NCBI GenBank assembly: GCA_039105265.1
Contig: JAPFFF010000029.1
Location: 558,001 to 622,000, forward strand
Origin: Tritrichomonas musculus
Lineage: Eukaryota > Parabasalia > Tritrichomonadida > Tritrichomonadidae
Direction of reading: 5' to 3'
Length of the DNA: 64,000 bases
Translations under genes and position numbers: made by a program
Part shown: positions 1 through 21,072 of the stretch, in pieces
Numbering within the stretch: the stretch's first letter is position 1
Layout of the letters: every line of letters starts with the position of its first letter
The notes under the pieces: model-generated
What the model was told of the DNA's origin: nothing
The model's database searches: none
The model's input: only the letters and a program-made list of their open reading frames with translations

Positions 1-86
1 AAACAAAAAAGAAAGAAATCGAGAAAAGTAAAGAAATGAAATAAAACAAAAACAAACAATTTTCATCATTTTTAAGTATAATCAAA

Positions 87-701
87 ATGAGCAAAAGAGT
101 ATCACAAAGTAAGAGATTGCAAGTTATACAAAAGTGGTTAAATGGGAGAGACGATCCTGAATATGAAGTGTTTCCGACTAAAAAAAAGGATAAGTATATA
201 GTAAGAGCACGTAAACAACCTTTAATAGATGTCTCACGAAAGCTTGACTTGAGTGAAGATAAGAGTGAAGATAATAAAATAGAACCTATTATAGAAGAAA
301 AGCAAATAGAAATAGAACAACCCAAAATAACTGAATCTAAACAAATAATAAAAGAAGAACGACCAAAACCTATTATAGAAAAAGAACAACCAAAAATATA
401 TAAACCTAAATCAGTATATGATCCAACAATAAATATAGAAATATTAAGTCAATTAAAATTATTAGGTGAAGAAATTAAAAGTGAAAGAGAAAAGAAAGAA
501 CAAAAAAGAATGATGAAAGAAGTATTTAATAAACAAATGCAAAAACAACATAATTCTATTTATCAGTATACTCAACCTAAATATATACAAAACCCGAATC
601 AAATAGAAGAATATGATGATGAAGCATCAAGTGAAGAACAAATTACTCCTCAACCTATTATGAGAAGAAGAAATAATATTTTCTCTGACATAATATATTA
701 A
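87..701 (+). CDS. Charged coiled-coil viral protein of unknown function
   Basis: This 204-residue protein is very rich in Lys, Glu, Gln and Ile. The first 65 residues are basic (it starts MSKRVSQSKRLQVIQKW). A Glu/Lys/Pro/Ile repeat-like middle follows (about 70-115), then a probable coiled coil (about 120-160), and the end is acidic then basic with a RRRNN patch. It has no signal peptide or membrane segment. It is the first complete gene in the window and lies 29 bp upstream of the candidate capsid gene on the same strand, so a structural or scaffold role is possible, but that is only inference from position. I do not recognise the family. Its codons are strongly A/T-ending, like the rest of the viral block. 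Confidence 0.6.
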   Translation: MSKRVSQSKRLQVIQKWLNGRDDPEYEVFPTKKKDKYIVRARKQPLIDVSRKLDLSEDKSEDNKIEPIIEEKQIEIEQPKITESKQIIKEERPKPIIEKEQPKIYKPKSVYDPTINIEILSQLKLLGEEIKSEREKKEQKRMMKEVFNKQMQKQHNSIYQYTQPKYIQNPNQIEEYDDEASSEEQITPQPIMRRRNNIFSDIIY

Positions 702-730
702 AAACACTTTTTTATTTTTCATAAAAGAAT

Positions 731-2330: not shown

Positions 2331-2378
2331 GAACAAAAATAAATGATATTAATTATTACGTTATTATTTTTATTTTTT
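2331..2378 (+). repeat. Direct repeat, left copy, at the start of the HNH gene
   Basis: About 48 bp beginning GAACAAAAATAAATGATATT. It recurs with few changes at 3116-3163, so the HNH gene sits between the two copies. The copy overlaps the upstream in-frame ATG at 2343. Confidence 0.75.
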
Positions 2379-2408
2379 TTTTTATTTCGTATTTACACAA
2401 ATATTATT

Positions 2409-3023
2409 ATGACAGAACAAGTTATTGAATTTGTTACTATTAATGAATATCCAGATTATGAAATATTAAATGATTATCCTTATACAATAAGAAGAAAAGA
2501 TAATCATTATGTAGTTAAAGAATGTATAAATAAAAGTAATGGTTATGTAAGTGTAAATATTAACGGTAACAAAATTAATAAACATCAAATTATAGCAAAA
2601 CAATTCTTATATAATGATGACCCAGAACATAAAATTTACGTAGATCATATTTCAAGAGATAGAACAGATTATCATTTATCAAATCTTCGTTGGTGTACAG
2701 CAAGTGAAAATATGAGAAATGCTTCATCAAGAAATGGAGTTGAATATGTATTTGTTGATAATATACCTAATGATGCAATAGTTATAACACATTATGATGT
2801 AAAGAATAAAAGAAGATATTTTGGTGAAAATCAATATTATTATTATTATAATGAAGAAACAGAAGAAGATGTATTTTATCAAAGAATAACTGATAATGTT
2901 TATAGAATAATGCATATTAATATAACAAAATGTGGATATAAATGTATAAAAACAACAGATATTAATAATAAAAAGACTACTTTATATATTCGTTCTTTCA
3001 AATATCAATATAATTTAATTTAA
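2409..3023 (+). CDS. HNH endonuclease with NUMOD4-like N-terminus (homing type)
   Basis: A 204-residue nuclease that would nick or cut DNA using one metal ion. The N-terminus resembles the NUMOD4 substrate-recognition motif (about 8-30, EYPDYEILNDYPYTIRRK). The HNH core follows with VDHISRDRTDYHLSNLRW and CTASENMRN, giving the usual H..N..N/H arrangement of phage and giant-virus homing nucleases. I chose the ATG at 2409 because the upstream ATG at 2343 adds only a hydrophobic LLFLFFFLF stretch encoded by a T-run inside a repeat. The gene is flanked by 48-bp direct repeats, which suggests it arrived as a selfish cassette. The C-terminal 90 residues are Tyr/Asn-rich and not recognised. Confidence 0.85.
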   Translation: MTEQVIEFVTINEYPDYEILNDYPYTIRRKDNHYVVKECINKSNGYVSVNINGNKINKHQIIAKQFLYNDDPEHKIYVDHISRDRTDYHLSNLRWCTASENMRNASSRNGVEYVFVDNIPNDAIVITHYDVKNKRRYFGENQYYYYYNEETEEDVFYQRITDNVYRIMHINITKCGYKCIKTTDINNKKTTLYIRSFKYQYNLI

Positions 3024-3115
3024 AAAAGTCTAACCATATTTTTGTTTTTGTCGATTGTTGATTGTCACTAAATATTTCATCAAAAATTAGAAACAGGAAC
3101 AAATATAAGAACAGG

Positions 3116-3163
3116 AACAAAAAATAAATGATATTAATTATTAAATTATTATTTTTGTTTTTA
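3116..3163 (+). repeat. Direct repeat, right copy, downstream of the HNH gene
   Basis: Matches 2331-2378 at roughly 44 of 48 positions by eye. It lies about 90 bp after the HNH stop codon. Confidence 0.75.
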
Positions 3164-3165
3164 TA

Positions 3166-3442
3166 TGTTCTTTGTTCCTATTTTGTTCCTAAATAAATAA
3201 TTTGATAAAAAAATGAGAGACAACAGACAACGGACAGATATTTTTTTCTACATTTTTTATATGTTCTTTGTTCCTGGAATGTTCCTGGATAAATAAGTTG
3301 ATAAAAAAATGAGAGACAACAAACAACGAACAGATATATTTTTCTATATTTTTTAAAAATGTTCCTGTTCCTGGAATGTTCCTGGATAAATAATTTGGTA
3401 AAAAAATGTGAGACAACAGACAAATGACAGAAAAAAAAAATA
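3166..3442 (+). repeat. Three tandem ~95-bp repeats, left flank of helicase gene
   Basis: Each unit holds TTGTTCCTGGAATGTTCCTG, then GATAAATAA, then GATAAAAAAATGAGAGACAA with a purine-rich tail ending near ACAGA. The first unit is the most diverged. The same unit occurs in inverted orientation at 5828-6112, so the helicase gene is bracketed by inverted repeat blocks. Short open frames here are by-products of the repeat. Confidence 0.85.
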
Positions 3443-3503
3443 ATTTTTTTTTTAATTTTATTTTTTAATTTTATTTTTTAATTTTATTTTTTTTATTATT
3501 TTT

Positions 3504-3515
3504 TATCACGCTATT
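3504..3515 (+). promoter_or_regulatory. TATCACGCTATT motif upstream of the helicase gene
   Basis: The 12-mer lies 12-23 bp upstream of the ATG at 3527, directly after a 60-bp T-rich tandem stretch of AATTTTATTTTTT units. It recurs at 6839-6850 and, one base shorter, at 12409-12419. Placement next to start codons suggests a promoter or operator; this is inference. Confidence 0.5.
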
Positions 3516-3526
3516 ACACAACAATA

Positions 3527-5794
3527 ATGACAGAAATAGAATTATTCGAAAAAGAGTTATTTGATTCAGAATTATTATTAATATGGGAGGTAAATCAATT
3601 AACATTAAATGAAAGAATAAAAGATAAAACAGTTAACTTATACAATTATCTCAAACATGATGGTGGTTATAGTAAAACAGTAACTGGTAAAGCATTACTT
3701 AACAATAAATGTATTAATCTTTCTATTATAGACGTAGATATTAATAAAGAATTAGAACAAGAAGAAAAAGATAAAATACGTATAAATATATTAAGCAAAT
3801 TAAGTGATAAAGATTTTATTGTACAAACTGCAAGTGGTGGTCTTCATATTTATTGTAATACAAATGATTATTATGTTGAATCGAATAGAATGATTAAATG
3901 TTTTACAAGTAATGATTATGATATTGATATATTCTCTTCATTTGATGTTGACAGTAGATCTTTAGTAGTATTACCTAATTCTAAAGTAAGAAAAAATGCA
4001 AAAGCACCAATATGTACATATAAAATATTACAAGGTTCATTAGATTCAAAAATAACACGATCATTAGAAGAAGTACTAGATGATTTAAATGTAAGTATTA
4101 AAATAAAACAAACACCAGAAATAGAGAAGATTATGTTAGATTATGAGAATGAGAATGAAAATGTAGATGATGAATATGCAAATAAGTTGATAGAAGGATT
4201 AACAGATATTGAAATACATAATGATGCAGGTGGAAGAAGAATAGAAGAAGAAGTAACATTATTTACGTTGTTTCAAGCTATTAACTCATTATCTTCAAAT
4301 TTAATCAATAAAGCTTATTCATTTGTTTTAGATAATTGTGTTTTAACTGATAATGCTCTTACTAATTTCGATAAAGCAAGAAAAAGATATAGTAAATTAT
4401 CAACTTCTCCTCATGTTTTAGAAAAGATAATACGATGTCATAATAATGAATATTATAAAACAGTTTTATCTCCTATTATTAGTTCAAATGAAATTGAAAT
4501 AAAAGAGATAGATTTAAATGACTCATTCACAATTAATGATATACGTAAAAAAGCAGAATTACATAAATATACTAGTAACAAAGAATTAATAGAAGATTTA
4601 TCAAGAGTTTTGAGATTAATAGATGACGGAAATGATACATATGTAATTAAAGTATATGATACAATTACTAAAACATTTTGTTTAAAGTTTGTTAATGATT
4701 CATTTATAGCTAAAACATTAAAACGAATTGCAATTAATGAAAAAATAAATGCACATACAATATTACTTAATAATTTATCTAAATTTAGTAGATTAGGAGT
4801 TAAGTTTAATAGTAACGATAAGAATGTAATATCTTTATTTCATGGTTACAAATATAAAATATTAGAAGAAGTAGAATTAGAAAAGATTAAGATGTTTCTC
4901 GATTTAATATTAGAAGTTATATGTGATAATAATGAAGAAGTATACGAATATGTGCTAAATTGGATTAGTTATATAGTTCAAAACCCAGGTATAAAATCAG
5001 AAATAGCATTAGTATTAAAAGGTTTACAAGGTATAGGAAAGAATCGTTTTACAGATATATTAAGCGAAATGTTGTGTAATTATTCAGCAAAGAACATAAC
5101 AGATATTAGTGAATTAACCGGACAATTTAATAGTATAGTAGAGGGTAAGATGTTAATTATACTTAATGAACTCAAAAATTGTGGTGATGATAGATTAGCT
5201 AATTTTAACGCATTAAAATCTATTATAACAGATAACATAATACGTATAAATGAAAAATTAGTACCAAGACGTGATGCTGAAAATGTTGCTAATTTCATAT
5301 TTGTAAGTAATAATAGTTTTCCGATTAAAATAGAAAAGGGTGATAGAAGATATGTTGTATTATCATGTAATGGTAAACATAAAGGTGATTTTAAATATTT
5401 TGAAACATTATGTAATTCATGTGATGAAAGTTTTTATAACAATTTGTTAACATTCTTTATGAAGAGAGATATATCAAGTTTTCAAATAAGAAGTATACCA
5501 ATGACAGAAGCAAAACAAGATTTAATAGAAGCAAGTAAGACACCATTAGATATTTGGATTTGCGAACATTATAATGATTTATGTGAAGGTATTATATGTG
5601 ATGATGCACTCCGATCGAAACCAGAAGATATGAAACAAAGAGCATTTCAATTACAATTAAAAGATAAATGTGAACGTAAAAGAAAGAGAATAGACGGACA
5701 ATTACATTGGATATACATATTAAAAGAAGAATGTAAAAATATATATTCACAAACAGTTGATGATAATATTGTAGAATTTGACGAAATGATGTAA
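3527..5794 (+). CDS. D5-like primase/superfamily 3 helicase
   Basis: The 755-residue replication protein unwinds DNA and probably primes it. N-terminal primase-polymerase signatures are LSIIDVDI (about 67-74), TASGGLHIYC (about 103-112) and DIDIFSSF (about 132-139), the usual acidic and His motifs of archaeo-eukaryotic primases. The C-terminal superfamily 3 helicase has Walker A GLQGIGKNR (about 497-505), Walker B MLIILNELKN (about 542) and motif C FIFVSNNSFP (about 590), followed by a likely arginine finger in GDRRYVVL. Length and domain order match D5-type proteins of Polinton-like viruses and NCLDVs. It stands alone between inverted repeat blocks and carries the TATCACGCTATT motif upstream, so it may be an early gene. 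Confidence 0.93.
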   Translation: MTEIELFEKELFDSELLLIWEVNQLTLNERIKDKTVNLYNYLKHDGGYSKTVTGKALLNNKCINLSIIDVDINKELEQEEKDKIRINILSKLSDKDFIVQTASGGLHIYCNTNDYYVESNRMIKCFTSNDYDIDIFSSFDVDSRSLVVLPNSKVRKNAKAPICTYKILQGSLDSKITRSLEEVLDDLNVSIKIKQTPEIEKIMLDYENENENVDDEYANKLIEGLTDIEIHNDAGGRRIEEEVTLFTLFQAINSLSSNLINKAYSFVLDNCVLTDNALTNFDKARKRYSKLSTSPHVLEKIIRCHNNEYYKTVLSPIISSNEIEIKEIDLNDSFTINDIRKKAELHKYTSNKELIEDLSRVLRLIDDGNDTYVIKVYDTITKTFCLKFVNDSFIAKTLKRIAINEKINAHTILLNNLSKFSRLGVKFNSNDKNVISLFHGYKYKILEEVELEKIKMFLDLILEVICDNNEEVYEYVLNWISYIVQNPGIKSEIALVLKGLQGIGKNRFTDILSEMLCNYSAKNITDISELTGQFNSIVEGKMLIILNELKNCGDDRLANFNALKSIITDNIIRINEKLVPRRDAENVANFIFVSNNSFPIKIEKGDRRYVVLSCNGKHKGDFKYFETLCNSCDESFYNNLLTFFMKRDISSFQIRSIPMTEAKQDLIEASKTPLDIWICEHYNDLCEGIICDDALRSKPEDMKQRAFQLQLKDKCERKRKRIDGQLHWIYILKEECKNIYSQTVDDNIVEFDEMM

Positions 5795-5827
5795 ATTAAA
5801 AAATTAAATTTATATTTTTGTTTTTAT

Positions 5828-6112
5828 ATTTTTCTGTCATTTGTCTGTTGTCTCTCATTTTTTTATCAAATTATTTATCCAGGAACAATCCAGGAACAAG
5901 GAACATATAAAAAAATATAGAAAAACATAAAAGAATAAATAAAAAAGAAATAAAGAAATAAAAACGGTTATAGAATAAATAAAATAAAGAAAGAAATAAA
6001 AACGGTTAAAAAATAAAATTAATAATTATTATTGTTCTTTGTTTGTTGTCTCTCATTTTTTTATCAAATTATTTATCCAGGAACAATCCAGGAACAAGGA
6101 ACATAAAAAATA
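5828..6112 (-). repeat. Two inverted copies of the ~95-bp repeat, right flank of helicase gene
   Basis: Two units carry TTGTCTCTCATTTTTTTATC followed by ATTTATCCAGGAACAATCC and GGAACAAGGAACAT, the reverse complement of the units at 3166-3442. About 100 bp of A-rich sequence with an AAAACGGTTATAGAA element separates them. Confidence 0.85.
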
Positions 6113-6482
6113 TAGAAAAAACATAATAGAATGAAAGTAGAAAAATTGAATTAAAAATAATAGAAAAAAAGAATAAAAGAATAAAAGACGGTTGTAGAAT
6201 AAATAATAGAAAATATAATATAAATGAGGGTTGTAGAATAATCAATTCAAAAATAAAATAAATAATAGAAAAATAGAATGTAAATGATGGTTGTAGAATA
6301 AATTAATAAAAAAGAGAATGAAAGACGGTTATAGAATAATCAATTCAAAAATAAATAACAGACAAATAAAAAGAGAATGAAAGACGGTTATAGAAAAAGA
6401 GAGATAGAGTAAATCACAGACAAATAAAAAGAGAATGAAAGACGGTTATAGAAAAAGAGAGATAGAATAAATAACAGACAAA
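5930..6482. repeat. Imperfect tandem array built on GACGGTTATAGAA
   Basis: A long noncoding, purine-rich stretch with about eight spaced copies of a (G)ACGGTTRTAGAATAA-like core. The last three units are the most regular, about 58 bp each, and carry AAAAAGAGAATGAAAGACGG. It overlaps the end of the inverted repeat block. Iterated short cores in a viral intergenic region are compatible with an origin or regulatory array; there is no direct evidence. Confidence 0.7.
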
Positions 6483-6690
6483 TATTTAATATATATAATT
6501 CGATGAGTATGAATAAGAGTATAAGTTAAGATCTAGTGTTATAATTAAATCGGACTAAAGATTTTGCTAAACTAAATAGGAGATAACTGATATTATAATT
6601 AAGATATTTGATAATTGTCGTAATATGAATAACTGACATCGATACTTGCGTAATAAAATACAAAGAATTGCTATTTTAGTCGCAAAACAT

Positions 6691-6710
6691 GTTTTATAAG
6701 CTTATAAAAC
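6691..6710. repeat. Perfect 20-bp palindrome
   Basis: GTTTTATAAGCTTATAAAAC is fully self-complementary. It lies at the end of the noncoding repeat region, about 165 bp before the next start codon. It could be a protein-binding site, a cruciform or a replication element. The flanking 6490-6690 is unique AT-rich sequence. Confidence 0.8.
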
Positions 6711-6838
6711 GAAATTTGTAAATTATATAGAAATTATGGATAAATGTCACTTTTTTATTTTTTATTTTTTAATTTTAATTTTAAATTTTTTTTTATTTTT
6801 AATTTTAATTTTAATTTTAAATTTTTTTATATATTTTT

Positions 6839-6850
6839 TATCACGCTATT
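6839..6850 (+). promoter_or_regulatory. TATCACGCTATT motif upstream of a small gene
   Basis: Identical to 3504-3515 and again preceded by a long T-rich run. It ends 25 bp before the ATG at 6876. The similarity continues downstream (ATACAAC here, ACACAAC there). Confidence 0.5.
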
Positions 6851-6875
6851 ATACAACACCCAAAAACAACAAAAA

Positions 6876-7366: not shown

Positions 7367-7819
7367 ATGGAGAATCAATTAAAGGTCTATGATTATATCA
7401 ATTTTGTTATATCTCTTGCTGATAACCCTGAACATTTTAAAGAATGTAATTTTGCAATTCTTTGCGATAGATATCCAATTCAGTTGAACCATAACAATTA
7501 TTTAGCTAAAGTAATGTATATTTCAATTAAAACAGATAAAGAAATATGGAGAATATATCCTGATAAAATCAAAGAATATGAAATAGAACACATCGTATTA
7601 AGTACTAATTCAAGACGCAGATTAAATTATAAAATGAAAGAATTCTTCGTTAATGGTTCAAATATAGAACAGAATTATGAAGAATATATTTATTATAATT
7701 ATTCAATTGAGTTAGTATCTAATAAAACTAAAGAATTAATAAATAAATTAAGAGAAAAATATAACTTAGTTACTCCAACCTTATTTGTAGGTGAATATCA
7801 ACCATTAGTAATAGAATAA
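7367..7819 (+). CDS. Hypothetical viral protein, 150 residues
   Basis: A soluble-looking mixed alpha/beta protein with no signal peptide or membrane segment, starting MENQLKVYDYINFVISLAD and ending FVGEYQPLVIE. The motif content does not identify it. It lies 56 bp after the previous gene on the same strand and follows a T-rich leader. Codon use matches the block. I cannot assign a function. Confidence 0.6.
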   Translation: MENQLKVYDYINFVISLADNPEHFKECNFAILCDRYPIQLNHNNYLAKVMYISIKTDKEIWRIYPDKIKEYEIEHIVLSTNSRRRLNYKMKEFFVNGSNIEQNYEEYIYYNYSIELVSNKTKELINKLREKYNLVTPTLFVGEYQPLVIE

Positions 7820-7853
7820 AACATGGATCGGAATTAATTCATATTTTTTTGAA

Positions 7854-8288
7854 ATGAAAATGAATAAATACAGAAATCCTAATTCAACTACAGTAGGTGT
7901 TGAAGGTGCTATGTTTAATGAAGCTACTAAAACTGAGAAGAATATAGAGTTTAATCATTATGGTATATTTTCAAATGATAATACATATGCTGTTACTTTC
8001 AATTATAAAATAAATAGACCACCCATAAAATATATAGAGAATAAACCAGTAAAGTCACCTAAATCAAATCAAAATATAACAAAACCTTTACATGAACCTC
8101 CTGTTTCTATTACTGATGCTGGTTATTATATTAAAAAAGATAAAGCACCTAAAACACCTATCTTACCACCTTATTTAAAGAAACCTGAAAAATTAGGTGA
8201 AATACAAGGATTAGCAGATGAAAGAAATAAAGGTAGAATACATTATTATAAACCTATTAATATGAATAAGAAATATATACATTATTAA
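7854..8288 (+). CDS. Basic, Pro/Lys-rich viral protein
   Basis: A 144-residue protein rich in Lys, Asn, Pro and Tyr. The middle (about 60-115) is a probably disordered Pro/Lys segment with KPVKSPKSNQN and KDKAPKTPILPPYLKKP. The charge suggests binding to nucleic acid or to another virion protein. A second ATG lies two codons in. The leader has ATTTTTTTGAA next to the ATG, similar to the next gene. Family not recognised. Confidence 0.55.
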   Translation: MKMNKYRNPNSTTVGVEGAMFNEATKTEKNIEFNHYGIFSNDNTYAVTFNYKINRPPIKYIENKPVKSPKSNQNITKPLHEPPVSITDAGYYIKKDKAPKTPILPPYLKKPEKLGEIQGLADERNKGRIHYYKPINMNKKYIHY

Positions 8289-8322: not shown

Positions 8323-8853
8323 ATGATAAAGAAGAGAACTAACAATGCAGGAGTAAACGCTAATGTTTCTTTAGAACCTCAAGCTGCAGCACAATCAACA
8401 TCTAATATAAGTAATAACATCATTATTAATAAGAGAGATGATGGTAAAGAAGAAATAGTAATTACAAGAGATATAGAATTAGAAGAAGATAAAGATTTAG
8501 CAGAATTAAAAGATCCAAAATATATAATACTTGAAACATATGCTAATATATTATTAAATCAAGATAAAGCTTTAATTGCAAATCTAGTATCAAAGAATTG
8601 TATTATAGTTCCATCTTCATCTTTATCTAATATTATTAAAGCAATTGTTAAAGCTGAATCAGTTGAAATAAGTTTAGATGAAGATATTAAATGTTGTAGT
8701 ACAAAAATAAACCCAATTCGAAAAATAGAAGCAATAAAGATTGTAAATGATAATGGAGAAGTATGTACTGATTTCAAACAAGTATATAATAGAGAATATA
8801 ATGAGTTAGTTAATAAATATCATCTTTGTTTGAAATATGGAATAAATATGTAG
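8323..8853 (+). CDS. Hypothetical viral protein, 176 residues
   Basis: The first 45 residues are polar and Asn/Ala/Gln-rich, followed by an acidic stretch (ELEEDKDLAELKDPKY, about 50-66) and a folded-looking alpha/beta C-terminus with three Cys. No membrane segment. It is preceded by a CTTTTTTTGAAAATGAA leader. Another ATG lies upstream at 8318 in a different frame and stops at once. Family not recognised; it is the fourth gene in a run of small + strand genes. Confidence 0.55.
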   Translation: MIKKRTNNAGVNANVSLEPQAAAQSTSNISNNIIINKRDDGKEEIVITRDIELEEDKDLAELKDPKYIILETYANILLNQDKALIANLVSKNCIIVPSSSLSNIIKAIVKAESVEISLDEDIKCCSTKINPIRKIEAIKIVNDNGEVCTDFKQVYNREYNELVNKYHLCLKYGINM

Positions 8854-8902: not shown

Positions 8903-9184
8903 ATGTCAAATAAAATAGATCTAACACAATTCAATCAAACAAATGTAATAAAGAAATTAACTAAATCTAAATCTAATGAAAATCTTAAAAATATAATTGA
9001 AGAAGAAACAAATAAAACTATAATAGAACCAATCGCTACTGTATCAAGAAGAGGAAGAAAGAGTAAATATAATAGTCAAGATGAAAGATTAGAAGCAAGA
9101 AGACAACAACAAAGAGAGTATCGATTAAGAAAGAAACAAGAATTAGAAGAGTTAAAGAAGATAGCTGCATCAATAAAGAAATAA
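8903..9184 (+). CDS. Small basic, putative DNA-binding protein
   Basis: A 93-residue protein. A polar N-terminus leads to an AT-hook-like RRGRKSKY (about 55-62), then a highly basic amphipathic helix (ERLEARRQQQREYRLRKKQE) that resembles a bZIP basic region without a clear leucine zipper. Short proteins with a GRK/GRP patch plus a charged helix are frequent in Polinton-like and large DNA viruses. It probably binds AT-rich DNA, as a transcription or packaging factor; that is inference from composition. It is the last gene before the strand switch to the polymerase, and the two genes converge with 36 bp between them. Confidence 0.6.
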   Translation: MSNKIDLTQFNQTNVIKKLTKSKSNENLKNIIEEETNKTIIEPIATVSRRGRKSKYNSQDERLEARRQQQREYRLRKKQELEELKKIAASIKK

Positions 9185-9220: not shown

Positions 9221-12200
9221 TTAGAACTTTATTTTTCGTTCAAAATGAGGAATATTAATTTGTTGATAAGATGATGATTTTCTAAAACAATTACTACCAT
9301 CTAATAAATTAAAAACTATTTCTTCACCTTTATACATTCTTTCATATAATTCTTCAACTGTAATATTCATTCGTTTACATTGGTTTAAGATACATTGCTT
9401 CGGTATACCTTTACATCGAATATGATAACCTTCATTACCGTGTTCATCAACTAATATATCAAGATATGATTTCTTACCTAATGCAATTAATTTTCTTGAA
9501 TAAACAGAACCAACAGATCCATCAAATGAATCAAAATCACAATGAAATTGAGTCATATTAGTACCTATTAATTCTTTACCATATTTTTGTTTAAATATTT
9601 GTGCTATCTTTGATACATCAATTTCTTTTAAATGAAGGCTGTCACAATCAGTGTAGTATATATCGATATTATTCTGTTCTGCTGTACTTATTACTTTATT
9701 CATTATATGTTTACTATACGATAACACAGTTGCACCAAATTGAGGAAGATTAAAATGACTATTAATAGGTTTCAATCTCTTTACATATATATTATTTATT
9801 TCTTTATTCTCTATAACTTCTGTAATATAATTATAATGTTTCCATATATATTTAATTGCATTATTTTTAGGTATACATTTCGTTTCTGTTGTTGTTGCTT
9901 TTAATATTGATTTACCGTAAATTGAATTTAACAGTAGCTTTATTGTTTGTTCTAATGGGTTCTTATCTTCTTTATATCTTTTTCTAAGATTAAACAATTT
10001 TTCAATAAATATATTAATCTTATTATTAAAACCTTCATCAAAGTAGTATCCTCTAATAAATTCATAATCAAATTCATAAAATTCTATTAAATCAAGAAAA
10101 GCTCTCTTATCTATATAATAATTATTAATAGGGTTATTGTTATATTTTTTAGACCCTTGTTTGTCTTTACTAAATATTTGTCCAAATTTATAAGGTTTAT
10201 CAGATTTGCATTTTATTTTTGTAATATTTATTTCAATAAAGAACTGATCATATTTTAATAATTTTTCTGTATTAATCAACGACGGTATTATTTTGGGTAG
10301 ACCTTGTGCTATACCTGGCATAATACTCATTGCACTGGGATATAATGAAACAGCATCAAAATCTTGTATTCTATCTTCTATATATTGTTTTTCATTATTA
10401 GCAGTCATAGTTCTACCTCCATTCACACATCGTTGAATAAAATTCTGTGGTTTACTACTTAATTGGTAACACTTGTCGAAACAACCAAATTTAAAAGCAT
10501 AATAATAACCTATCGAACTAATAGAGATAAAATTATGAACATTCGGTACATCAGTATTTGTTTGTTTAAATACTTCTATTAGATCACGATTAAATTTTTC
10601 TACTCCTTTCATTAATACAATACAATCAAGCTTACAATAATATATAGCGTATTTCATTATATCTATCTTCATATCATCATATGCACCACAAGCTTTAGCA
10701 TTATTTATTAATTGTTTCCAATCTTCTTTTATTTGTTTAAACTTTAATTTATCTTTATTCTCTAAATAATACTGTAATTGAAATTCAAGTGCACTTACAT
10801 ATTGTCTTTTTATATTCTTTTCTGTATATATTCGATAAGTCATTATCTCTTTATGAGTAGAAAGTTGAAACATTTTTGCAAAAGATGATAATGCAGCTGG
10901 TATAAGTGAATAACTATTTCTAAATGTTAATCTCTTCTCTATTACATTTATCGTACTTTTATCTTTTGCTTTAATCTCTTTATACTTAGTCATAACTATT
11001 TGTAATATTGTACCATTTCTTTCTGTTATTTGTACATCCCACCCTATTGTATTAATAAAGAAACAAGCATCATATTTAAGATTATGAAAATATGTTAATG
11101 AATTATTTTCTAATGATTTCAATAATCTGTCTGAAATATTGGGTCCGTCAAATATCATTTTATGAATTAATTCTTTTGTTCTATATATTGTAATATTAAG
11201 ATAAGGTTTATGTGGTGAAACAGTAGTATCAGTTTCAAAATCAGAATAATATATTTTTGACCATTCTCTCTCTTTTTTCGTTTCTGATGAATCTATTAAT
11301 TTTGTACATAAATCAGGATCATAATCTAAATCAACATAATCATTTAAATGACTATTATATTCGTTTGTTGCTAATATATTCATTTCACAATTCTTTATAT
11401 CTCTAAATTTATTTTCTTTAAATAACTTACGTAATATCGTCATAAGATTTACATTATTTAATGGTTTGTTTATCATATAATGATTCTTGTATAATAATAA
11501 ATCTACAGTTCTATTAAAATCTTTAGCCCATTCTTTCTTTCTTGTATCTATCTTTATTTGTTGTTGATGCTTTGTATCATATTTCTCTTCTATACGTCTT
11601 ACAATAAAATGACATTTAAAATGTTTTGCTAACTCATATATCATATTGTTAGGTACTAAACGTGTTTTAATCATAAATCTCATGTGATTAATTTCATTTT
11701 CTGTAAATACTTTTGATTGAATACAAGCATATACTAAACAATTATCTTTATAATTCTTCTTATCTATTGTTTTGAATATTTGATATTGTGTTAAATCTAA
11801 ATCAGATAAATTAATATATGGAAAGAACCCACCTTCATGATTATCTCTATAATCTTCATCTATTTCTATTTCTTCTTCATATAACTGTCCTTTATTATCT
11901 TGTTTATCTACTGCAAATGTTGTTTTTCTACCTTTCTTTCGATTATGTACGAATAATAATTGATATTTAGATGGAATAAATGAATTACCGATAAAAGGGT
12001 TATTATCAGAACAATCATAGTTTAAATCTATTGTACCTGATATGTGTCCTATAGTTGAATCTATCTTTCTTTCTTGTGATAAAGTAAACCATTTATATTG
12101 TTCACCATCTAATGATTCACTTTTAACTACTACACCCTTTTTATTATTTTTATGTAAATGTCTTAATGTTTCTGTAAATGCTAATCTCTTATCTTCATCA

Positions 12201-12376
12201 TCTCCTATATCTATATCAAATGATATTTCTTTATTAGCTTTCGACATAAACTCTCTTAAATATTTCTTGAACTTAGTTTTATTTTTTACTTCTTTTATTC
12301 TCTGTTTATATTCTTTTCTTGCTTCTGTTTTTGCAGTTGAATAAAGATCAACAGATATATCAAATAAATAACTCAT
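9221..12376 (-). CDS. polB: Protein-primed family B DNA polymerase
   Basis: The 1051-residue replicative polymerase has a complete proofreading exonuclease: Exo I YYSDFETDT (about 376), Exo II YFHNLKYDACFF (about 430) and Exo III YYCKLDC (about 583). The palm motifs are A DFDAVSLYPSAM (about 677), B LLLNSIYGKSI (about 818) and C YYTDCDSLHL (about 910), with KKSY following. The SLYP/NSxYG/YTDxDS set and length fit polymerases of Polintons and adintoviruses, which prime from a terminal protein. The first 350 residues are an extension in which DNCLVYACIQS and LLLYKNHYMI recall a Cys/His hydrolase-like fold; this part is uncertain. The gene opposes the + strand genes on either side. Confidence 0.95.
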   Translation of the reverse strand: MSYLFDISVDLYSTAKTEARKEYKQRIKEVKNKTKFKKYLREFMSKANKEISFDIDIGDDEDKRLAFTETLRHLHKNNKKGVVVKSESLDGEQYKWFTLSQERKIDSTIGHISGTIDLNYDCSDNNPFIGNSFIPSKYQLLFVHNRKKGRKTTFAVDKQDNKGQLYEEEIEIDEDYRDNHEGGFFPYINLSDLDLTQYQIFKTIDKKNYKDNCLVYACIQSKVFTENEINHMRFMIKTRLVPNNMIYELAKHFKCHFIVRRIEEKYDTKHQQQIKIDTRKKEWAKDFNRTVDLLLYKNHYMINKPLNNVNLMTILRKLFKENKFRDIKNCEMNILATNEYNSHLNDYVDLDYDPDLCTKLIDSSETKKEREWSKIYYSDFETDTTVSPHKPYLNITIYRTKELIHKMIFDGPNISDRLLKSLENNSLTYFHNLKYDACFFINTIGWDVQITERNGTILQIVMTKYKEIKAKDKSTINVIEKRLTFRNSYSLIPAALSSFAKMFQLSTHKEIMTYRIYTEKNIKRQYVSALEFQLQYYLENKDKLKFKQIKEDWKQLINNAKACGAYDDMKIDIMKYAIYYCKLDCIVLMKGVEKFNRDLIEVFKQTNTDVPNVHNFISISSIGYYYAFKFGCFDKCYQLSSKPQNFIQRCVNGGRTMTANNEKQYIEDRIQDFDAVSLYPSAMSIMPGIAQGLPKIIPSLINTEKLLKYDQFFIEINITKIKCKSDKPYKFGQIFSKDKQGSKKYNNNPINNYYIDKRAFLDLIEFYEFDYEFIRGYYFDEGFNNKINIFIEKLFNLRKRYKEDKNPLEQTIKLLLNSIYGKSILKATTTETKCIPKNNAIKYIWKHYNYITEVIENKEINNIYVKRLKPINSHFNLPQFGATVLSYSKHIMNKVISTAEQNNIDIYYTDCDSLHLKEIDVSKIAQIFKQKYGKELIGTNMTQFHCDFDSFDGSVGSVYSRKLIALGKKSYLDILVDEHGNEGYHIRCKGIPKQCILNQCKRMNITVEELYERMYKGEEIVFNLLDGSNCFRKSSSYQQINIPHFERKIKF

Positions 12377-12432: not shown

Positions 12433-13164
12433 TCATTTTGTTAGAATATCATATATATCTGCATTTGTACTTGGTTTTATTTTTAATGTAATAAATAATG
12501 GAGACTTTAATATAACGGGTTGAAACATAAAATCAACTAATCTCATTTCAAGATATTTTAATGAATCTGTATTCACTTTTATTTTTATAGGTTTTGTTAT
12601 ATCATAATTCACTATCAATGCTTCTTGATCTAATATCATTGTATCTATGTTTGCAATAATACTAGGTGTATATTCTTTGTCGCCTATAGCAGAATGAGTT
12701 GCTACACCTTGTAATGAAACCAAATATAATTTATTAGCAAAATCTAATATAGGTAGATCAGGTACTTTCTTTTCTTCATTTGCATTCACTTCAAAATAAG
12801 AACAATTAAAGAAACCTGTAATCAATTTTGCTCTATGACTTCCTTCTTTAAATATTATGTTTTCAGTAGATGTTAATGATATTGTTCTGTTATTTATATT
12901 TTTAAATTCTATAATCTTCTGACATGTATTTAGAAATTTAACTAAATAATTAAATGAATAATTATATGCTTCTTCAAAATCTATTCTTATTTCTTTATTA
13001 GCTGTTTCAAATATTAGATAATCATCTTCTGTCGTCATTAAAATATTAACTTTTGTATTAATCGATGATACATAATATTTAACAAATTCGCATTTCCATG
13101 GTATATCGATATTAAATCTAACAGTATTATAATTATCTGATTTACTTTGAATTGAATACAACAT
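12433..13164 (-). CDS. Candidate penton (minor capsid, single jelly-roll) protein
   Basis: A 243-residue protein expected at capsid vertices. The layout follows the Polinton/adintovirus minor capsid pattern: an early strand pair, a helical YNYSFNYLVKFLNTCQK segment (about 88-104), an I-F-K / LITGFFN segment where relatives have 'L...LGF' (about 125-140), ANKLYLVSLQGVATHSAIGD (about 160-179) matching the usual 'iYvysDi...vGd' strand, and a closing LEMRLVDFMFQP..(17)..KIKPS resembling 'IEI.L.D..G..V'. No membrane segment. It is coded with the polymerase on the - strand and is divergent from the fibre genes, with only 19 bp between start codons. Assignment is by pattern and could be wrong. Confidence 0.55.
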   Translation of the reverse strand: MLYSIQSKSDNYNTVRFNIDIPWKCEFVKYYVSSINTKVNILMTTEDDYLIFETANKEIRIDFEEAYNYSFNYLVKFLNTCQKIIEFKNINNRTISLTSTENIIFKEGSHRAKLITGFFNCSYFEVNANEEKKVPDLPILDFANKLYLVSLQGVATHSAIGDKEYTPSIIANIDTMILDQEALIVNYDITKPIKIKVNTDSLKYLEMRLVDFMFQPVILKSPLFITLKIKPSTNADIYDILTK

Positions 13165-13183: not shown

Positions 13184-16100
13184 ATGTCTTTAGCACTGTA
13201 TTCTTGTAAAAGTAAAGAAGCATATAAATTAAGATCAAATGATATAGAAATAAGTATTAATGAAGATGAACAAATTAATTTCGAAAATACAAACGATCCT
13301 GAAAAAATGGTTCAATTCAATTGTATATATAATAAAGATGAGATTACTACTCTTTTAGGTACACAGGGTTTCACACCAGAACAATTTGTTGAACTCCCTA
13401 TTTCTGGCGGATATAAATTATATCATTTTAATGATGAAAACTTTAATACTATTTCTAATGAAGGTTATTGTGCAACATATAAAAAATTATTTGAATTATT
13501 AAATACTAGTACTAAAAATTTAAATTCATTACTTAATAAATTAGGATCTAATATAAAATTTCTTCAAAATGCTTCATTAACAATAATAGGGAGTGATGAA
13601 ACAAAAGACGTATCAATTTATAAAAATCTCATTTCAGCACTAAATATAAATAACGAAAATATATCAGGTGTAATAAATCATATCTATGAAATAATTTCTT
13701 CTATTGATTCATTTTCAGTAGACGAATTTCTAAAAACAATACTACAAAAAGATGAAGAAATGACATCAATTATATTAAATACTGAAACAAATAATTATAT
13801 ATCAACTCAAGTATCAATAACAAAATATAAAGAATTAGTATCTGAATTAGAAAAATTAACAATTGTTCTTACTCAAATATTAATAGTTGAACCAACAAAT
13901 GATTTAACATATATTGAAGAAACGAAAACAAAGAAAGAAGGACCTGACGAATTATCAAATGATTCAAATCAATATATCTATACATATTCAACTAAATCAA
14001 AGCATGTTGATACATTTACAGAATTAATTAATCAATTAAGCATTTCAACTTCTAATATTGAAAAATGGGTGACGAAAATAGAACAAATTAAAACTTCAGG
14101 TATAGATCCAAATTCTAAATGTTCATTAAATGATTTAAAATATATTGATACAACTAATTCAATTAAAACAATTAAACCTAATACATTAAACAATCTAATA
14201 ACTAAATTAAGCGAAAATAATAATAATCTACATACTTGGTTATCATCTAAAGAAAGTAGTGATAGTGATTTCAATGAATATATAAAGAATTTAAATGATA
14301 TGGAGTTATTAGTTTGTATGAAGAAAGGTGATGAATATGTTTTTCAAAAATTAAAAGTTCATAAAAATGATAAATCTACTACTACCCCTACTGATGCTAT
14401 TATCGAATCATCTATAGAGGGACAGTTTGTTGATGAAACTAATAATGTGATATTAGATTTAAACAATTTAGCAGATATTCAAGAATTAGAGAAAAATAAT
14501 GTAGCTGTTAATATGTCTTTAATTGAATCTATTAATGTTGTGTTTGATACTTATAAAACATTAGGAATAGTTATTAAACACACATTTCAGCTTTTAAATA
14601 GTTGTGTATTAAGCCCTAGTACTCATTTCGTAATTAATACATCTAAATTTTTATGGAATAATTATATTTATCCAAGTATTAGATACGGAGTAGATCAATA
14701 TGGGAGATTAAAGAAATATGTTATTAATTTTGGAGATGATAATGAATTTATACCTACAAATGTTGAAGATGATTCTTATATTTTGAAATATTTAAAAAAT
14801 AAAGTGATAGCAACAGAAGAAATAGCTATTAATACATGGAATGATTTATATGATTTCTTCAGAGATGCGACTTCAGAATTTTATGTAGTATTTGGTAGCA
14901 TGTTTCTTACAATAGCTATACTATCACAAGATTGCACTGCACCTAATGCAAGAGCATTAGAAGAAGATGATGAACTTGATAATTTAGAAGAAATATTTGA
15001 ACCTAATAAATATTCTATTGTTGATGTAATATACAAATTAAAAAATAAATTATATAATCATATTAAAAATCATCCTTCATCATCAGGTTCTTCATCATCA
15101 TCTGATTCTAATTTTACTGTTAAAAACGGTTTCTCTGCTTACGACATAAAAGTTAAAGATTTGTATAATACTACAATGATAATAAATGAAAAGAACTATA
15201 ATATACTACAAATTAATATTTCAAATGAATTCTCTGAAATAACTGAGAAAACTAATATTTTTAAAATTATATTGAGAAATAATATTTTATATGACGTAGA
15301 TGGGAATTTAATGAAAGAATTCTTTATTTATATTAAAAATCAACATATTTATAATCCTGTAATTTCAAGAACTGAAACAAACTCATATAATGTTGTAAAT
15401 CAGAGTGAAGAAAATAAATTTTATATTGCATTTGAAACAATTAATCCTTACGATTTGTATATTAGCGGTGAATTAAGTATTCAATATCTGTTATCACAAG
15501 ATTCATTGATATCAAATAAACCTACTATTAAATGTGATATTATTGAAGCAGAAAATGCATTAAAGTTATACAAGAATGATAATTTATATTTATACTTACC
15601 AGATATCATAACTGAAGAAACATTAGAAATAGAAGCACCTAATTCAAATAAAGTAGAAAAAGAGTTTTATAAAATTATCTATAAAATACCGACCGATTAT
15701 GTTATTCCGATTAATATGAAATTTATATTTAAAGAATTTTGTTTTGGTAATGAATGGGACTTAATATGGAATGGATCTAAATGGGTTGAAAATAATTGTA
15801 AAGGTTTAATTAGAGGTAAGGTTTCATCTAAATTAAGAAAAGTAAATACAAAACAAAACTCTGATGGTGCTATAGGTTGCTTTATTTTAATTAAAGATAC
15901 AAAAACACATCATTCAATTATACCTGAAAATGAAAACGGTTTATTATATAGTTTAATTGAAAACAGTAATATAGATACAACAATTTATTATACGCATAAA
16001 GATGAAAGTTATGATGGTGCTTTATATGACGTAGAATGGTATTTTGATAAAAAATTAAACGGTGCAAAATGTGACGGATATGATATGTTAAATATTTACT

Positions 16101-17452: not shown

Positions 17453-17481
17453 ATGATGTAGTTAATTTTTTTTGGATTTAA

Positions 17482-20400
17482 ATGAGTGATACAACAACTA
17501 AATTCATAGGTGATATTCAATTTAAAGTAGGAGATAGTACACGTAAAGCTAGTCAATTATTAACATTAAGTGATTTAGATGGGTATGTTCAAACCGGGCA
17601 CTTATTTAATGAAGTAGAAGGTATACCTGAATTTAATATTAAAAATAATAATATATTATACGAATCATTTGAATCGAGTACAAATAAATATCATATTCTT
17701 AAATTTGTTAATATACCTGATGATTTTATGAATAAAGTGAATGAAATAACGACACAAACTAATATTTTTAAAATTGTATTAAGAAAGAATATAGTATATG
17801 ACACAAATGGTAATTTAGTTAAAGAATTCTATATTTATGTAAAAGATAAACAAATATATTCTCCTATTATAACAAAAGGTGAAAATGGTTGCTCTATTAA
17901 TAATAGTACGATATTTACATATATTAATATCGCATTTGATGTTAATCTAGATTTTAATCCTTATACATTATGGATGAATGGTGAATTAAGTATTATGAAT
18001 GAATATTTAACAGATTCATTACAAACAGAGAAAGCAATAAAATGTTCAATTATTAAAGCTGATAATGCATTAAAACTACATAAGAGTGATGTAATGTATT
18101 TATATAAACCAAATACAATTACTGAAGATAATGAATATTATAAAATGATTTATAAAATACCTTCTAATTATACTATACCTACTAATCTTCAATTTAAATT
18201 TAATGAATACTGTTTTGGTAATAAATGGGATTTAATATGGAATGGTACAAAATGGGATGGAAATAACATTCAAGGTAGATCAAACGGTATGATTATCAAT
18301 AAATGTAATTCAAGAGCTTATAAAAAAAGTAGTGAAGGCGAACAAGGAGCTATGATTATGATAAAGAAAAGTGAATGGAATTTAAAATTTATAACTGATA
18401 CTAGTATTGTTGAACAAGAAGGGTATATGCAACAATTTTATACGATTTGTTCTAAAAATGATTATATCTTATTTAAAGATGGTTCGTTAAAATCAGCTCA
18501 TGATTATGGATTATGGATTAGAAGTACTGGTTTACAATCATTAGATAATAGAGGGTTATCATACACTAAAGATAAGACTTATGATTGGATGTGTTTTTGT
18601 GGTGTGTTAATGAAAGAGAAAGCAGATTTATTAGATTTATCACAAATTAGTTTGTTATATATGGATTTAATTGCACCTAATTGTGATATAGCAAATAGAT
18701 TATCGTTTAAATTAGATAATACAACGAAACATAATAATACTAAAATCGGTCTATATTATTATTTAGATTTAGTAGGTGTTGATGATACAATAGAAAAAAT
18801 ATTTTATAGATATGAAGATTCTAATATTACAACAAGAGATATTGAACTATATTTGAAAAAAGATTTGGTAGATCCAATCGAAGAAGTAAACTGGGATCAA
18901 CAAACAAACCCTTTTAAATATATTATAGATCAACAATTTTATGAAATAACTCCTAATCCAAATGCAGCAACTACTCTTTATACAGATTATAATATAACTA
19001 GTTCTAAGATTATAACTGCTGATAATATTACGACGATGAGAAGTGATTTAAATATAGTTACTAATAATTTAGATGTTGTTTCGTATGATTTAACTGAAAT
19101 GAATCATAAAGTTAATGTACTAAATTCAGAAATGACAGAAGTTAAAGATATTACTCAACATTTAGAAAATGATGTTAAAAATTTAAGAATTGTATCATAT
19201 ACAGCTTTAGCATTTGGTATAGTAGGTACAGTGAGTAGTGCAACATCTATCGGTATGCAATTGTTCCCACATGGTATTAAAATGATATCAAGCTTTTTTA
19301 GAGGTTTATTTGATAAAGTAAGAGTTGCTGGTGCACCAAATTGGACAAGATTGCAAATGATATTGGGTAACCCTGCAATAAGAAGTATATCAACAGATAT
19401 ATCACCTATTATTGAATGGTGTAATTCATCATACAAACAATTAGATGATATTACTTTTGAAAATGAAGATGATAACCCTAATGAGTATAGTGTATCAGTT
19501 GAATCAGCTTATGAAATTGGGAATCAATTTAGAGAAACATTAAAACCAGTATTTAAATTATTAGCAGAAAAAATAAATGAAATAGAAGCAGAATTTAATT
19601 ATTATCCTACTATTGATGAAATTAATGAAGGATTAAAGAATGCAATATTAAAAGATGAATTAGTTAGAGATGATGTAATAGATGTAGTAGGTAGATTTGT
19701 TAATAAAGAAATACATTTAGAAGCTGAAGATACAATAACTGATGGAATAATTAAAGTACGATTTTTAATACAAAAAATAAGTGAATATAATGATGTAGAT
19801 TATATAGAGAATTTTGTAACTATTAACATTAATAACGGTACTATTAATTATGAAGGGACAAATGATTTCCCAACTTGTACAATGAATGATAAAACAATAA
19901 TCATATCTAATCCAAATAATGAAAAAGTTGGTGGAATACAAATTAAAGAAAATACTGCGAAAAGAAGAATGAAATTTACAATTAATGATCTAGCATATAC
20001 TTGTGATATAGAAGCTTTACATAAAAAGATAGATACATTACATGAACAAACTGAAGCTAATATTGTTTCATTAACTTCTACATTAAATGAATTCCCTACT
20101 ATTGGTGAAGTTAATGCTGCATTAGATGAATTAAAAAATAACCTGTATACGAAAGAAGAAGCAGATAATAAATATGCTTTGAAAACAGATATAAAATCAA
20201 CAGAGAAAATAACCCAAGAATTATCAATAGCTACAAAATTCATAAATGGAACAACAAATGATGAAGATAAAAGAACTTATATCACAAATTTGGATGGAGA
20301 TTTATGTAAAATATTAAAGAAATCATCATTGATAGTAAAAGGTTCTTGCAATAATGAAGATATTTCAGGAGAATATTTGTATGATAGTGAAGATGTAGAA

Positions 20401-21072
20401 TATTATCATTACAAGAAAGGTGAAAATACTTTTTCTATTTATTATCGCTATTACAATGGAACATTCAGATATAATAGTAATTATGTTTTGGATTTAGAAT
20501 CAGTAAGTTATTCATACGAACCAGAAGTTTATGACAAATATTGTATTCCAAATATGAATTTAGTAAAAAATAATTATGCGTTGAAGAGTGAAAATGATGA
20601 ACTGAAGACAAGGATAGAAAATTTAGAGAGAGAGAACACAAATTTAAAGGCTACGATAGCCGCTTTTGAAGCTAGAATTTATGCGCTTGAACCACATGAA
20701 CCACCAACACCAACTTTGCCTGATTTCTATCAAGGGTTTACATATCGTGAAGTTGGTGAAGATGATTATTACACTATTAGGGAAAGACAACAAGGAGTAT
20801 TGTATTTTGATTTTAATTTTGCTATTATTAATGATGATACAGAATATGTTGGGGTATTTGAAGATTTCAATGAAGTCGTACACTATGTTAGGTTCAAATG
20901 GGATAAAGAGAATGATAAATGTATATATTATCTTGATGAATTAAATGGAAATACAGCACCATTAACTCAAGATTCAGGTGATTATTGTAAAGTTCCAGAT
21001 GAACTACAGGATTCATTTGATTCAACAATATATCATCGTGTAGCATATCTTGAAGTTTATTCAAAACCATAA
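17482..21072 (+). CDS. Giant fibre-like protein 2, paralogue of fibre 1
   Basis: A 1196-residue protein. It lacks the long helical N-terminus of fibre 1 but repeats the module (about 75-530) with YCFGNKWDLIWNGTKW and ITSSKIITADNITTMRSDLN. A coiled coil and a hydrophobic stretch (SYTALAFGIVGTVSSATS, about 572-590) follow in the same order. The C-terminus is different: helical segments with TKEEADNKYALK, a leucine-type coil (LERENTNLKATIAAFE), a Pro hinge (HEPPTPTLP) and a 120-residue beta-rich tip. That layout, stalk then hinge then tip, suggests a receptor-binding head. A related coil-encoding fragment lies inverted at about 23652-23850. Function is inference. Confidence 0.65.
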   Translation: MSDTTTKFIGDIQFKVGDSTRKASQLLTLSDLDGYVQTGHLFNEVEGIPEFNIKNNNILYESFESSTNKYHILKFVNIPDDFMNKVNEITTQTNIFKIVLRKNIVYDTNGNLVKEFYIYVKDKQIYSPIITKGENGCSINNSTIFTYINIAFDVNLDFNPYTLWMNGELSIMNEYLTDSLQTEKAIKCSIIKADNALKLHKSDVMYLYKPNTITEDNEYYKMIYKIPSNYTIPTNLQFKFNEYCFGNKWDLIWNGTKWDGNNIQGRSNGMIINKCNSRAYKKSSEGEQGAMIMIKKSEWNLKFITDTSIVEQEGYMQQFYTICSKNDYILFKDGSLKSAHDYGLWIRSTGLQSLDNRGLSYTKDKTYDWMCFCGVLMKEKADLLDLSQISLLYMDLIAPNCDIANRLSFKLDNTTKHNNTKIGLYYYLDLVGVDDTIEKIFYRYEDSNITTRDIELYLKKDLVDPIEEVNWDQQTNPFKYIIDQQFYEITPNPNAATTLYTDYNITSSKIITADNITTMRSDLNIVTNNLDVVSYDLTEMNHKVNVLNSEMTEVKDITQHLENDVKNLRIVSYTALAFGIVGTVSSATSIGMQLFPHGIKMISSFFRGLFDKVRVAGAPNWTRLQMILGNPAIRSISTDISPIIEWCNSSYKQLDDITFENEDDNPNEYSVSVESAYEIGNQFRETLKPVFKLLAEKINEIEAEFNYYPTIDEINEGLKNAILKDELVRDDVIDVVGRFVNKEIHLEAEDTITDGIIKVRFLIQKISEYNDVDYIENFVTININNGTINYEGTNDFPTCTMNDKTIIISNPNNEKVGGIQIKENTAKRRMKFTINDLAYTCDIEALHKKIDTLHEQTEANIVSLTSTLNEFPTIGEVNAALDELKNNLYTKEEADNKYALKTDIKSTEKITQELSIATKFINGTTNDEDKRTYITNLDGDLCKILKKSSLIVKGSCNNEDISGEYLYDSEDVEYYHYKKGENTFSIYYRYYNGTFRYNSNYVLDLESVSYSYEPEVYDKYCIPNMNLVKNNYALKSENDELKTRIENLERENTNLKATIAAFEARIYALEPHEPPTPTLPDFYQGFTYREVGEDDYYTIRERQQGVLYFDFNFAIINDDTEYVGVFEDFNEVVHYVRFKWDKENDKCIYYLDELNGNTAPLTQDSGDYCKVPDELQDSFDSTIYHRVAYLEVYSKP

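What the first reader, a model, noticed from the sequence alone, without database searches (positions are those of the whole stretch)
1..21072. Candidate new Polinton-like DNA virus integrated in a trichomonad genome
The block combines a protein-primed PolB, a D5-type primase-helicase and pattern-level matches to double-jelly-roll MCP and penton proteins, with two >1000-residue fibre-like proteins. Gene content and two giant adjacent fibre genes differ from classical Mavericks as I know them. All main frames are intact, so the insertion is recent or maintained.
Basis: partly seen in the sequence, partly recalled or inferred. Interest (0 to 1): 0.9.

Follow-up and report, generated by a model that had tools for sequence, protein, structure and literature searches.

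The report
Intact Polinton virus in mouse-gut protist
The window holds most of a complete, recently inserted DNA virus of a known kind (a Polinton) in the genome of a mouse gut protist; the less expected part is a DNA-copying gene, framed by inverted repeats, that sits in different places in related copies or is missing from them.

Summary
Window 1-21456 is the right 84% of a 25.56-kb Maverick-Polinton in Tritrichomonas musculus. The left 4.1 kb, outside the window, holds an RVE-type integrase and a packaging ATPase. The element has 307-nt terminal inverted repeats with identical arms and a 5-bp target duplication (ACCTT). [quoted passage not shown] The family is large (MCP 81 scored of 2181 candidates, integrase 112 of 1923) and under purifying selection (dN/dS 0.07-0.21, one pair of copies).

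It is a member of a known kind: Mavericks with capsid genes are published for T. vaginalis and T. foetus. The unexpected part is the primase-helicase gene, bracketed by inverted repeats in 11 of 11 copies examined. In the window's subfamily it lies on the integrase strand; in another it lies inverted beside PolB. Four close relatives lack it, a fifth holds a different primase-helicase in the slot, and one copy keeps it but has lost PolB. I read it as a replication cassette exchanged between copies. That it moves by itself is inferred, not shown.

The parts
1..39 (+). 3' end of a 171-aa small basic protein whose first 159 codons lie left of the window; function unassigned
   Evidence: read across the window border from adjoining C29 sequence
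87..701 (+). 204-aa protein, unassigned
   Evidence: ORF; found in C14, C19, C33, C44, C17, C6
731..2329 (+). major capsid protein, double jelly roll, 532 aa
   Evidence: 288 homologues, 120 listed; AF2 model and fold search
2343..3023 (+). HNH endonuclease-like protein, 226 aa; accessory (this gene is absent from the C14 copy, which has a 50% identical one)
   Evidence: PF13392 E=8.9e-7; C14
3134..3506 (.). left inverted-repeat array of the primase-helicase cassette, with TGTTCC motifs
3527..5794 (+). primase-helicase: SF3/D5-type helicase, possible AEP primase N-terminus, 755 aa
5793..6135 (.). right inverted-repeat array of the cassette, with GGAACA motifs
3055..6727 (.). variable accessory slot: primase-helicase cassette here; 0.7-0.8 kb of sequence without more than short AT-rich similarity in C33, C44, C17, C6; a different primase-helicase in C22
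6876..7310 (+). conserved small protein (ORF listing starts it at 6744; the stretch conserved in relatives starts near 6876)
7367..7819 (+). 150-aa protein, unassigned, conserved
7854..8288 (+). 144-aa protein, unassigned, conserved
8323..8853 (+). 176-aa protein, unassigned, conserved
8903..9184 (+). 93-aa protein, unassigned
9221..12376 (-). PolB, protein-primed type: N-terminal vOTU-like region (invariant C213, H299), exonuclease and polymerase
   Evidence: PF03175 E=2.3e-27; alignment of 24
12433..13164 (-). penton protein, 243 aa
13184..17452 (+). large fibre-like protein 1, 1422 aa
17482..21072 (+). large fibre-like protein 2, 1196 aa, paralogue of protein 1
21150..21456 (-). right terminal inverted repeat, 307 nt, identical to the left arm (C29:553898-554204)
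21457..21461 (.). target-site duplication ACCTT (left copy at C29:553893-553897)

Best explanation
The block is a complete, recently inserted Maverick-Polinton (an endogenous double-jelly-roll DNA virus) of Tritrichomonas musculus, one member of a large family. Inferred life cycle: the RVE integrase inserts a linear genome with a 5-bp staggered cut; pPolB copies it from the ends by protein priming; DJR MCP, penton, ATPase and the large fibre-like proteins make and fill a capsid. A primase-helicase gene with its own inverted flanks sits in an accessory slot. It most likely supplies a second, internal initiation or unwinding system, and it is gained, lost, moved and flipped among copies together with its flanks. 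Shown: anatomy, ends, TSD, predicted folds of two capsid proteins, purifying selection in one pair of copies, presence, absence and two positions of the cassette. Inferred: virion formation, replication roles, how the cassette moves.
For: TIRs with identical arms (307 nt) and TSD; five more elements with both ends read each carry a 5-bp TSD, read by eye from the printed flanks (TTTAA, TGGGT, GAGCC, ACTAA; ACAAT), so 6 of 6; for C19 only the left end was found. Integrase PF00665 E=6.8e-6 and A32-type ATPase PF04665 E=1.8e-6 in the left part. MCP and penton folds. dN/dS C29 against C33 0.07-0.21 in 8 genes, no stops in C33. MCP without inner stop in 79 of 81 scored places. Cassette: 5 copies at 96-100%, on the integrase strand in 3 of 3 with a scored integrase, 3433 bp from an opposite-strand PolB in 2 of 2 with a scored PolB; 19 copies at 73-74%, opposite to the integrase in 17 of 17 with one scored nearby, and on the PolB strand in 11 of 11 with one scored nearby, 163-166 bp (8) or 976 bp (3) away. 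Absent in C33, C44, C17, C6. Inverted flanks in 11 of 11 copies examined, out of 64 rows: nine by self-comparison (C29; C52; C12 two and C1; C2, C37, C13, C16) and C14, C19 by matching both window arms. 149 bits in C29 against at most 35.6 in 40 approximate dinucleotide shuffles, 115 against at most 22.0 in C52. DNA similarity of C16 with C2 and C12 begins within 10 bases of the outer edge of the left arm and ends in the right arm.
Against: No particle, transcript or replication product is in evidence here. The integrase score is below Pfam's own cut-off (26.7 against 32.6 bits). No Ulp1-type protease was recognised. The AEP primase reading of the N-terminus is weak (1rni E=1.3, domain E 5.1). 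The cassette has no shown target duplication of its own; among C2 and C12, and among C37, C13 and C16, similarity runs on past the inverted repeats, so those copies move, if at all, as part of something larger. The GGAACA motif that fills the window's arms is rare in the C12 and C1 stretches (2 and 1 sites), so it is no general mark of the cassette. Shared intergenic repeats and homologous recombination could do the shuffling. The PolB-less derivative C14 has its deletion junction in only 1 of 40 scored places, so nothing shows that it multiplies. The 96% copy in C11 has three stops in the primase-helicase.
Confidence: 0.9

Rival explanations
1. The element is a capsid-gene-bearing transposon that copies itself only inside the nucleus and no longer makes particles.
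For: At least 112 integrase and 81 MCP copies in one genome, from 1923 and 2181 candidates; a C519 contig whose two ends are 100% identical to C29 and whose length matches.
Against: MCP and penton evolve under purifying selection (dN/dS 0.14 and 0.21, C29 against C33) although synonymous change is large; MCP frames without inner stop in 79 of 81 scored places.
Confidence: 0.25
2. It is a chance block of unrelated viral-like fragments or an assembly chimera.
For: The region right of the element is repeat-rich, with a degraded second end.
Against: Identical TIRs, TSD, the same gene order outside the accessory slot and fibre region in C33, C44, C17 and C6, and a second contig of the same sequence.
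Confidence: 0.02
3. The primase-helicase differences are ancestral presence plus repeated loss and one ordinary inversion or relocation, with no mobile cassette.
For: Only two positions seen within Polintons; HNH and other genes in the slot also come and go; similarity runs past the inverted repeats in part of the other copies.
Against: Two positions and two orientations with the inverted flanks carried along; a different primase-helicase in the same slot in C22; relatives in stretches where no other gene of this element was detected, with short flanks read.
Confidence: 0.45

Closest known systems
Maverick-Polintons of Trichomonas vaginalis and Tritrichomonas foetus (Metamonada MCP group, Bellas and others 2023, PMC10120064; passages read)
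   Same: Host group, very high copy number, DJR MCP by structure prediction; integrase and pPolB type as recalled for T. vaginalis Mavericks
Mavirus and Sputnik virophages
   Same: Penton and MCP folds; mavirus also has pPolB and RVE integrase (recalled)
   Different: 8-13% identity in the structural alignments; no giant-virus link tested
Polinton-like viruses with SF3 helicases fused to AEP or PolA (PMC4642659, PMC11071308; passages read)
   Same: SF3 primase-helicase as replication protein; patchy distribution of replication genes
   Different: Those mostly lack RVE integrase and pPolB (one element, from M. neglectum, is reported with both); here primase-helicase, pPolB and RVE integrase sit in one element
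Polinton-related contig in an archaeal MAG, Methanovirga (JAISTD010000017.1, L002)
   Same: PolB 50% identical in the best segment, same N-terminal Cys and His pattern
   Different: Other gene order and a 2067-aa protein; probably a protist virus binned with an archaeon (inferred)

Membership tests
Maverick-Polinton | RVE-type (retroviral-like) integrase | tested here: met
   L041:7526-8626, PF00665 E=6.8e-6, but 26.7 bits against a curated cut-off of 32.6; 112 copies scored at 88-100%. Catalytic residues not checked.
Maverick-Polinton | Protein-primed family B polymerase | tested here: met
   PF03175 in 24 of 24 aligned sequences; invariant C213 and H299 fit the vOTU domain described in PMC11071308. 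Terminal-protein domain not tested.
Maverick-Polinton | Terminal inverted repeats and 5-6 bp target duplication | tested here: met
   307 nt, identical arms, ACCTT; 6 of 6 elements with both ends read
Maverick-Polinton | DJR major capsid protein | tested here: met
Maverick-Polinton | Penton / minor capsid protein | tested here: met
Maverick-Polinton | A32/FtsK-type packaging ATPase | tested here: met
   PF04665 28.0 bits against cut-off 22.8
Maverick-Polinton | Ulp1-type maturation protease | tested here: inconclusive
   No credible protease family in Pfam scans of 16 of the element's 17 ORFs; the 171-aa protein was not scanned
Polinton-like virus (as opposed to Polinton) | Lacks the combination of pPolB and RVE integrase | tested here: not met
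   Both present
DUF4106 MCP family of T. vaginalis Mavericks | Match to the DUF4106 model | tested here: inconclusive
   No such row for 34 sequences; presence of the model in this Pfam copy not verified; genome search for PF13388 (accession recalled) did not complete
AEP-SF3 primase-helicase | SF3/D5-type helicase | tested here: met
   DUF5906 E=2.1e-20; 6k9c E=1.2e-20; PHROG primases. That these are SF3 helicases is recalled.
AEP-SF3 primase-helicase | AEP primase domain | tested here: inconclusive
   Only pRN1 ORF904 at E=1.3, domain E 5.1; motif reading is from recall
Autonomous transposable element (cassette) | Defined ends with target duplication outside Polintons | tested here: inconclusive
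   Similarity stops at or in the arms between C16 and C2/C12 but runs past them within C2/C12 and within C37/C13/C16; no target duplication looked for beyond printing the flanks

The most novel reading that the evidence does not exclude
The primase-helicase gene with its inverted flanks is a self-contained replicon that moves among trichomonad Polintons and other repeats of the same genome as a unit, giving a protein-primed virus a second way to start replication and, in copies such as C14 that have lost PolB, possibly its only one. That would be replication-module exchange, so far inferred between distant virus groups, caught among close copies in one genome.
Probability: 0.3. Interest if true: 0.75.

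Novelty: new variant of a known kind. Interest (0 to 1): 0.5.

Why it matters
It gives one fully bounded, recent Polinton of a mouse-gut commensal, with predicted capsid folds and evidence of selection, so the question 'virus or transposon' becomes testable in an organism kept in mice. The variable primase-helicase cassette matters more. Polintons, Polinton-like viruses and virophages differ much in their replication proteins, and how one set replaces another is inferred from distant comparisons. Here related copies in one genome carry pPolB alone, pPolB plus primase-helicase in either of two places, or primase-helicase alone.

Tried and rejected
PCNA reading of the 243-aa protein: UniRef labels its T. 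musculus copy P0121 with a name beginning 'Proliferating cell nuclear a' (label truncated in the output). No Pfam support in 34 sequences, and the predicted fold is a penton's; rejected.

Primase-helicase as an insertion unique to this element: rejected after one search found 19 copies at 73-74% in another position.

PolB-less C14 as a spreading lineage: its deletion junction is found only in C14 (1 of 40 scored of 872 candidates); not supported.

GGAACA repeats as a general mark of the cassette: dense in the window and C52 arms, but 2 and 1 sites in the C12 and C1 stretches; not supported beyond the two Polinton subfamilies.

Viral contigs: MCP and single PolB found nothing in IMG/VR; the PolB alignment found one distant contig. 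Phage records: none. Sequence searches of solved structures with MCP and PolB gave nothing credible. MCP profile against the L032 capsid candidate: probability 3.6. NCBIfam gave no fitting family for seven proteins. PolB tree: 31 rows, being 29 picked by me from 103 of 950 aa or more, plus the window and L032; the window lies among unnamed rows and near T. musculus rows; no T. vaginalis row was available.

The tally of PolB without primase-helicase (31 of 44) used only 26 of the 64 primase-helicase rows (those at 63% or more) and only scored candidates, so it is an upper estimate of absence.
Full report
What was checked. The window lies at bases 558001-622000 of contig C29 of a 193.4-Mb genome in 746 contigs. 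The host is Tritrichomonas musculus: the 243-aa protein is 100% identical over 93% to protein M9Y10_020178, whose longest contig has 1,922,990 bases, the length of C29. Size fits the published assembly, 193.49 Mb with 42.67% masked as repeats (PMC11978803, passages).

Anatomy. The right-hand genes are in the window; the left-hand ones were read from 10 kb fetched to the left. In order: left TIR, 427-aa protein, integrase, ATPase, 171-aa protein, 204-aa protein, MCP, HNH, primase-helicase, five small proteins, then PolB and penton on the minus strand, then two large fibre-like proteins and the right TIR. A 308-nt stretch left of the first gene is identical to window 21150-21457 in inverse orientation. 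Allowing for one base shared with the duplication, the TIR is 307 nt, starts AG, and is flanked by ACCTT on both sides. The element is therefore C29:553898-579456, 25,559 bp. Identical arms and open frames point to a recent insertion.

Polymerase. The family B polymerase aligns with 23 relatives. Besides exonuclease and polymerase motifs there is a conserved N-terminal region in which C213 and H299 are invariant in all 24. This fits the viral OTU-like domain that a preprint describes in pPolBs (PMC11071308, passages). The terminal-protein domain itself was not tested.

Copies. In the same genome the MCP search scored 81 of 2181 candidates; 79 of the 81 places have no stop inside. Integrase: 112 scored of 1923. 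PolB: 44 of 1475. Near-identical MCP copies are C29, C519, C14 and C19, with a partial one in C11. C519 is a 20,821-bp contig whose first 1100 and last 1022 bases are 100% identical to the C29 element and whose length equals the matching span; it may be a redundant contig or another copy. Relatives C33, C44, C17 and C6 are 23.1-23.8 kb, with TIRs, a 5-bp TSD each, and the same gene order except for the accessory slot and the fibre region; C17 shows no match to the 188-aa or 93-aa protein. C44 and C6 have PolB matches in two pieces, which suggests frameshifts there.

Selection and mosaicism. Between C29 and C33 dN/dS is 0.107 integrase, 0.073 ATPase, 0.089 427-aa protein, 0.142 MCP, 0.118 PolB, 0.207 penton, 0.147 and 0.129 in two small proteins. 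Synonymous distance is 0.12-0.30 in the three left genes but 0.93 in MCP and 0.55 in PolB, which suggests that blocks of the element have different histories, through recombination among copies.

The primase-helicase cassette. In the window the gene lies at 3527-5794 between arrays that are inverted repeats of each other (149 bits against a maximum of 35.6 in 40 approximate dinucleotide shuffles). The motif GGAACA/TGTTCC starts at 18 places in window 1-21457, 15 of them in 3096-3377 and 5882-6098, against about 4.4 expected from base composition. C33, C44, C17 and C6 have no primase-helicase match; their 0.7-0.8 kb between HNH and the next conserved stretch has only short AT-rich matches to window 3055-6727. 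C14 keeps the primase-helicase but lacks window 8870-17693, that is the 93-aa protein, PolB, penton, all of fibre protein 1 and the first part of fibre protein 2; its TIRs and TSD are present, and the junction occurs in no other of 40 scored places. C19 has two HNH genes and the primase-helicase, then diverges.

Across the genome the primase-helicase search scored 59 of 473 candidates and printed 64 rows. Of five copies at 96-100%, three have a scored integrase nearby, on the same strand. Nineteen copies at 73-74% lie on the opposite strand to the integrase in 17 of 17 cases with one scored nearby and beside PolB on its strand in 11 of 11. In one of these, C52, the cassette lies inverted between the 93-aa gene and PolB, again framed by inverted repeats (125 bp, 81.6%) that match the window's arms. 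C22, whose integrase is 96% identical to this element's, holds in the same slot an 878-aa protein, 37% identical in the helicase part alone; no inverted repeat brackets it, though a 373-bp imperfect palindrome follows it.

Seven further copies at 55-64%, in stretches where no other gene of this element was detected, also have inverted flanks of 117-220 bp and 81-92%. Between C16 and C2 or C12 the DNA similarity begins within 10 bases of the outer edge of the left arm and ends in the right arm, as a cassette would; but within C2/C12 and within C37/C13/C16 it continues past the arms. Only 0.1-0.7 kb was read outside the left arm and 0.25-1.5 kb outside the right, so neither independence nor exact ends are shown.

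Interpretation. The element works like, and is, a Maverick-Polinton. The cassette is best read as a replication module kept with its flanks and exchanged between copies; HNH genes nearby could help by cutting, but that is conjecture. [quoted passage not shown] so having both in one element is not new in itself. I found no description of an inverted-repeat-framed, relocating primase-helicase in Polintons in the listings; I saw passages of five papers and not the whole literature.

Verdict. After checking, interest was set to 0.50 (0.52 before) because of the passage in PMC4642659.

Noticed in passing
window 21699-22419 and 22693-23413: A 721-nt perfect inverted repeat around a 273-nt centre with 52-bp tandem repeats, a foldback-like element directly right of the Polinton.
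   Followed up: no
window 23524-23569 and 23658-23821: Degraded end of another Polinton copy in opposite orientation: TIR end (83% over 46 nt) and the tail of a fibre-like gene (82% over 163 nt to C14).
   Followed up: partly
window 52139-53854 and 60231-62210: Two host-like ORFs in inverted orientation share nearly identical stretches, as after a recent duplication.
   Followed up: no
L041:3584-4081 and 5143-5820: DDE_1 transposase fragments left of the Polinton (PF03184 E=3.7e-13 and 1e-8).
   Followed up: no
L001 (CAMWTP010000137.1), L002 and L003 (JAISTD010000017.1, JAISTD010000086.1): Bacterial and archaeal MAGs of public collections carry contigs of this virus kind (PolB 60%, 50%, 50%), probably binned by mistake with prokaryotes.
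   Followed up: partly
P0121: UniRef gives the penton of this element a name beginning 'Proliferating cell nuclear a'; the fold search does not support it.
   Followed up: yes
L071:110-4337 and 5007-9235: Two primase-helicase copies lie on C12 in opposite orientation, in 99.9% identical inverted arms of 4.2 kb.
   Followed up: partly
L067 (C19:2225501-2235400): Beside the C19 copy lie ORFs of 552, 826 and 462 aa and faint PolB (26%) and ATPase (22%) matches, perhaps a second, distant virus lineage.
   Followed up: no
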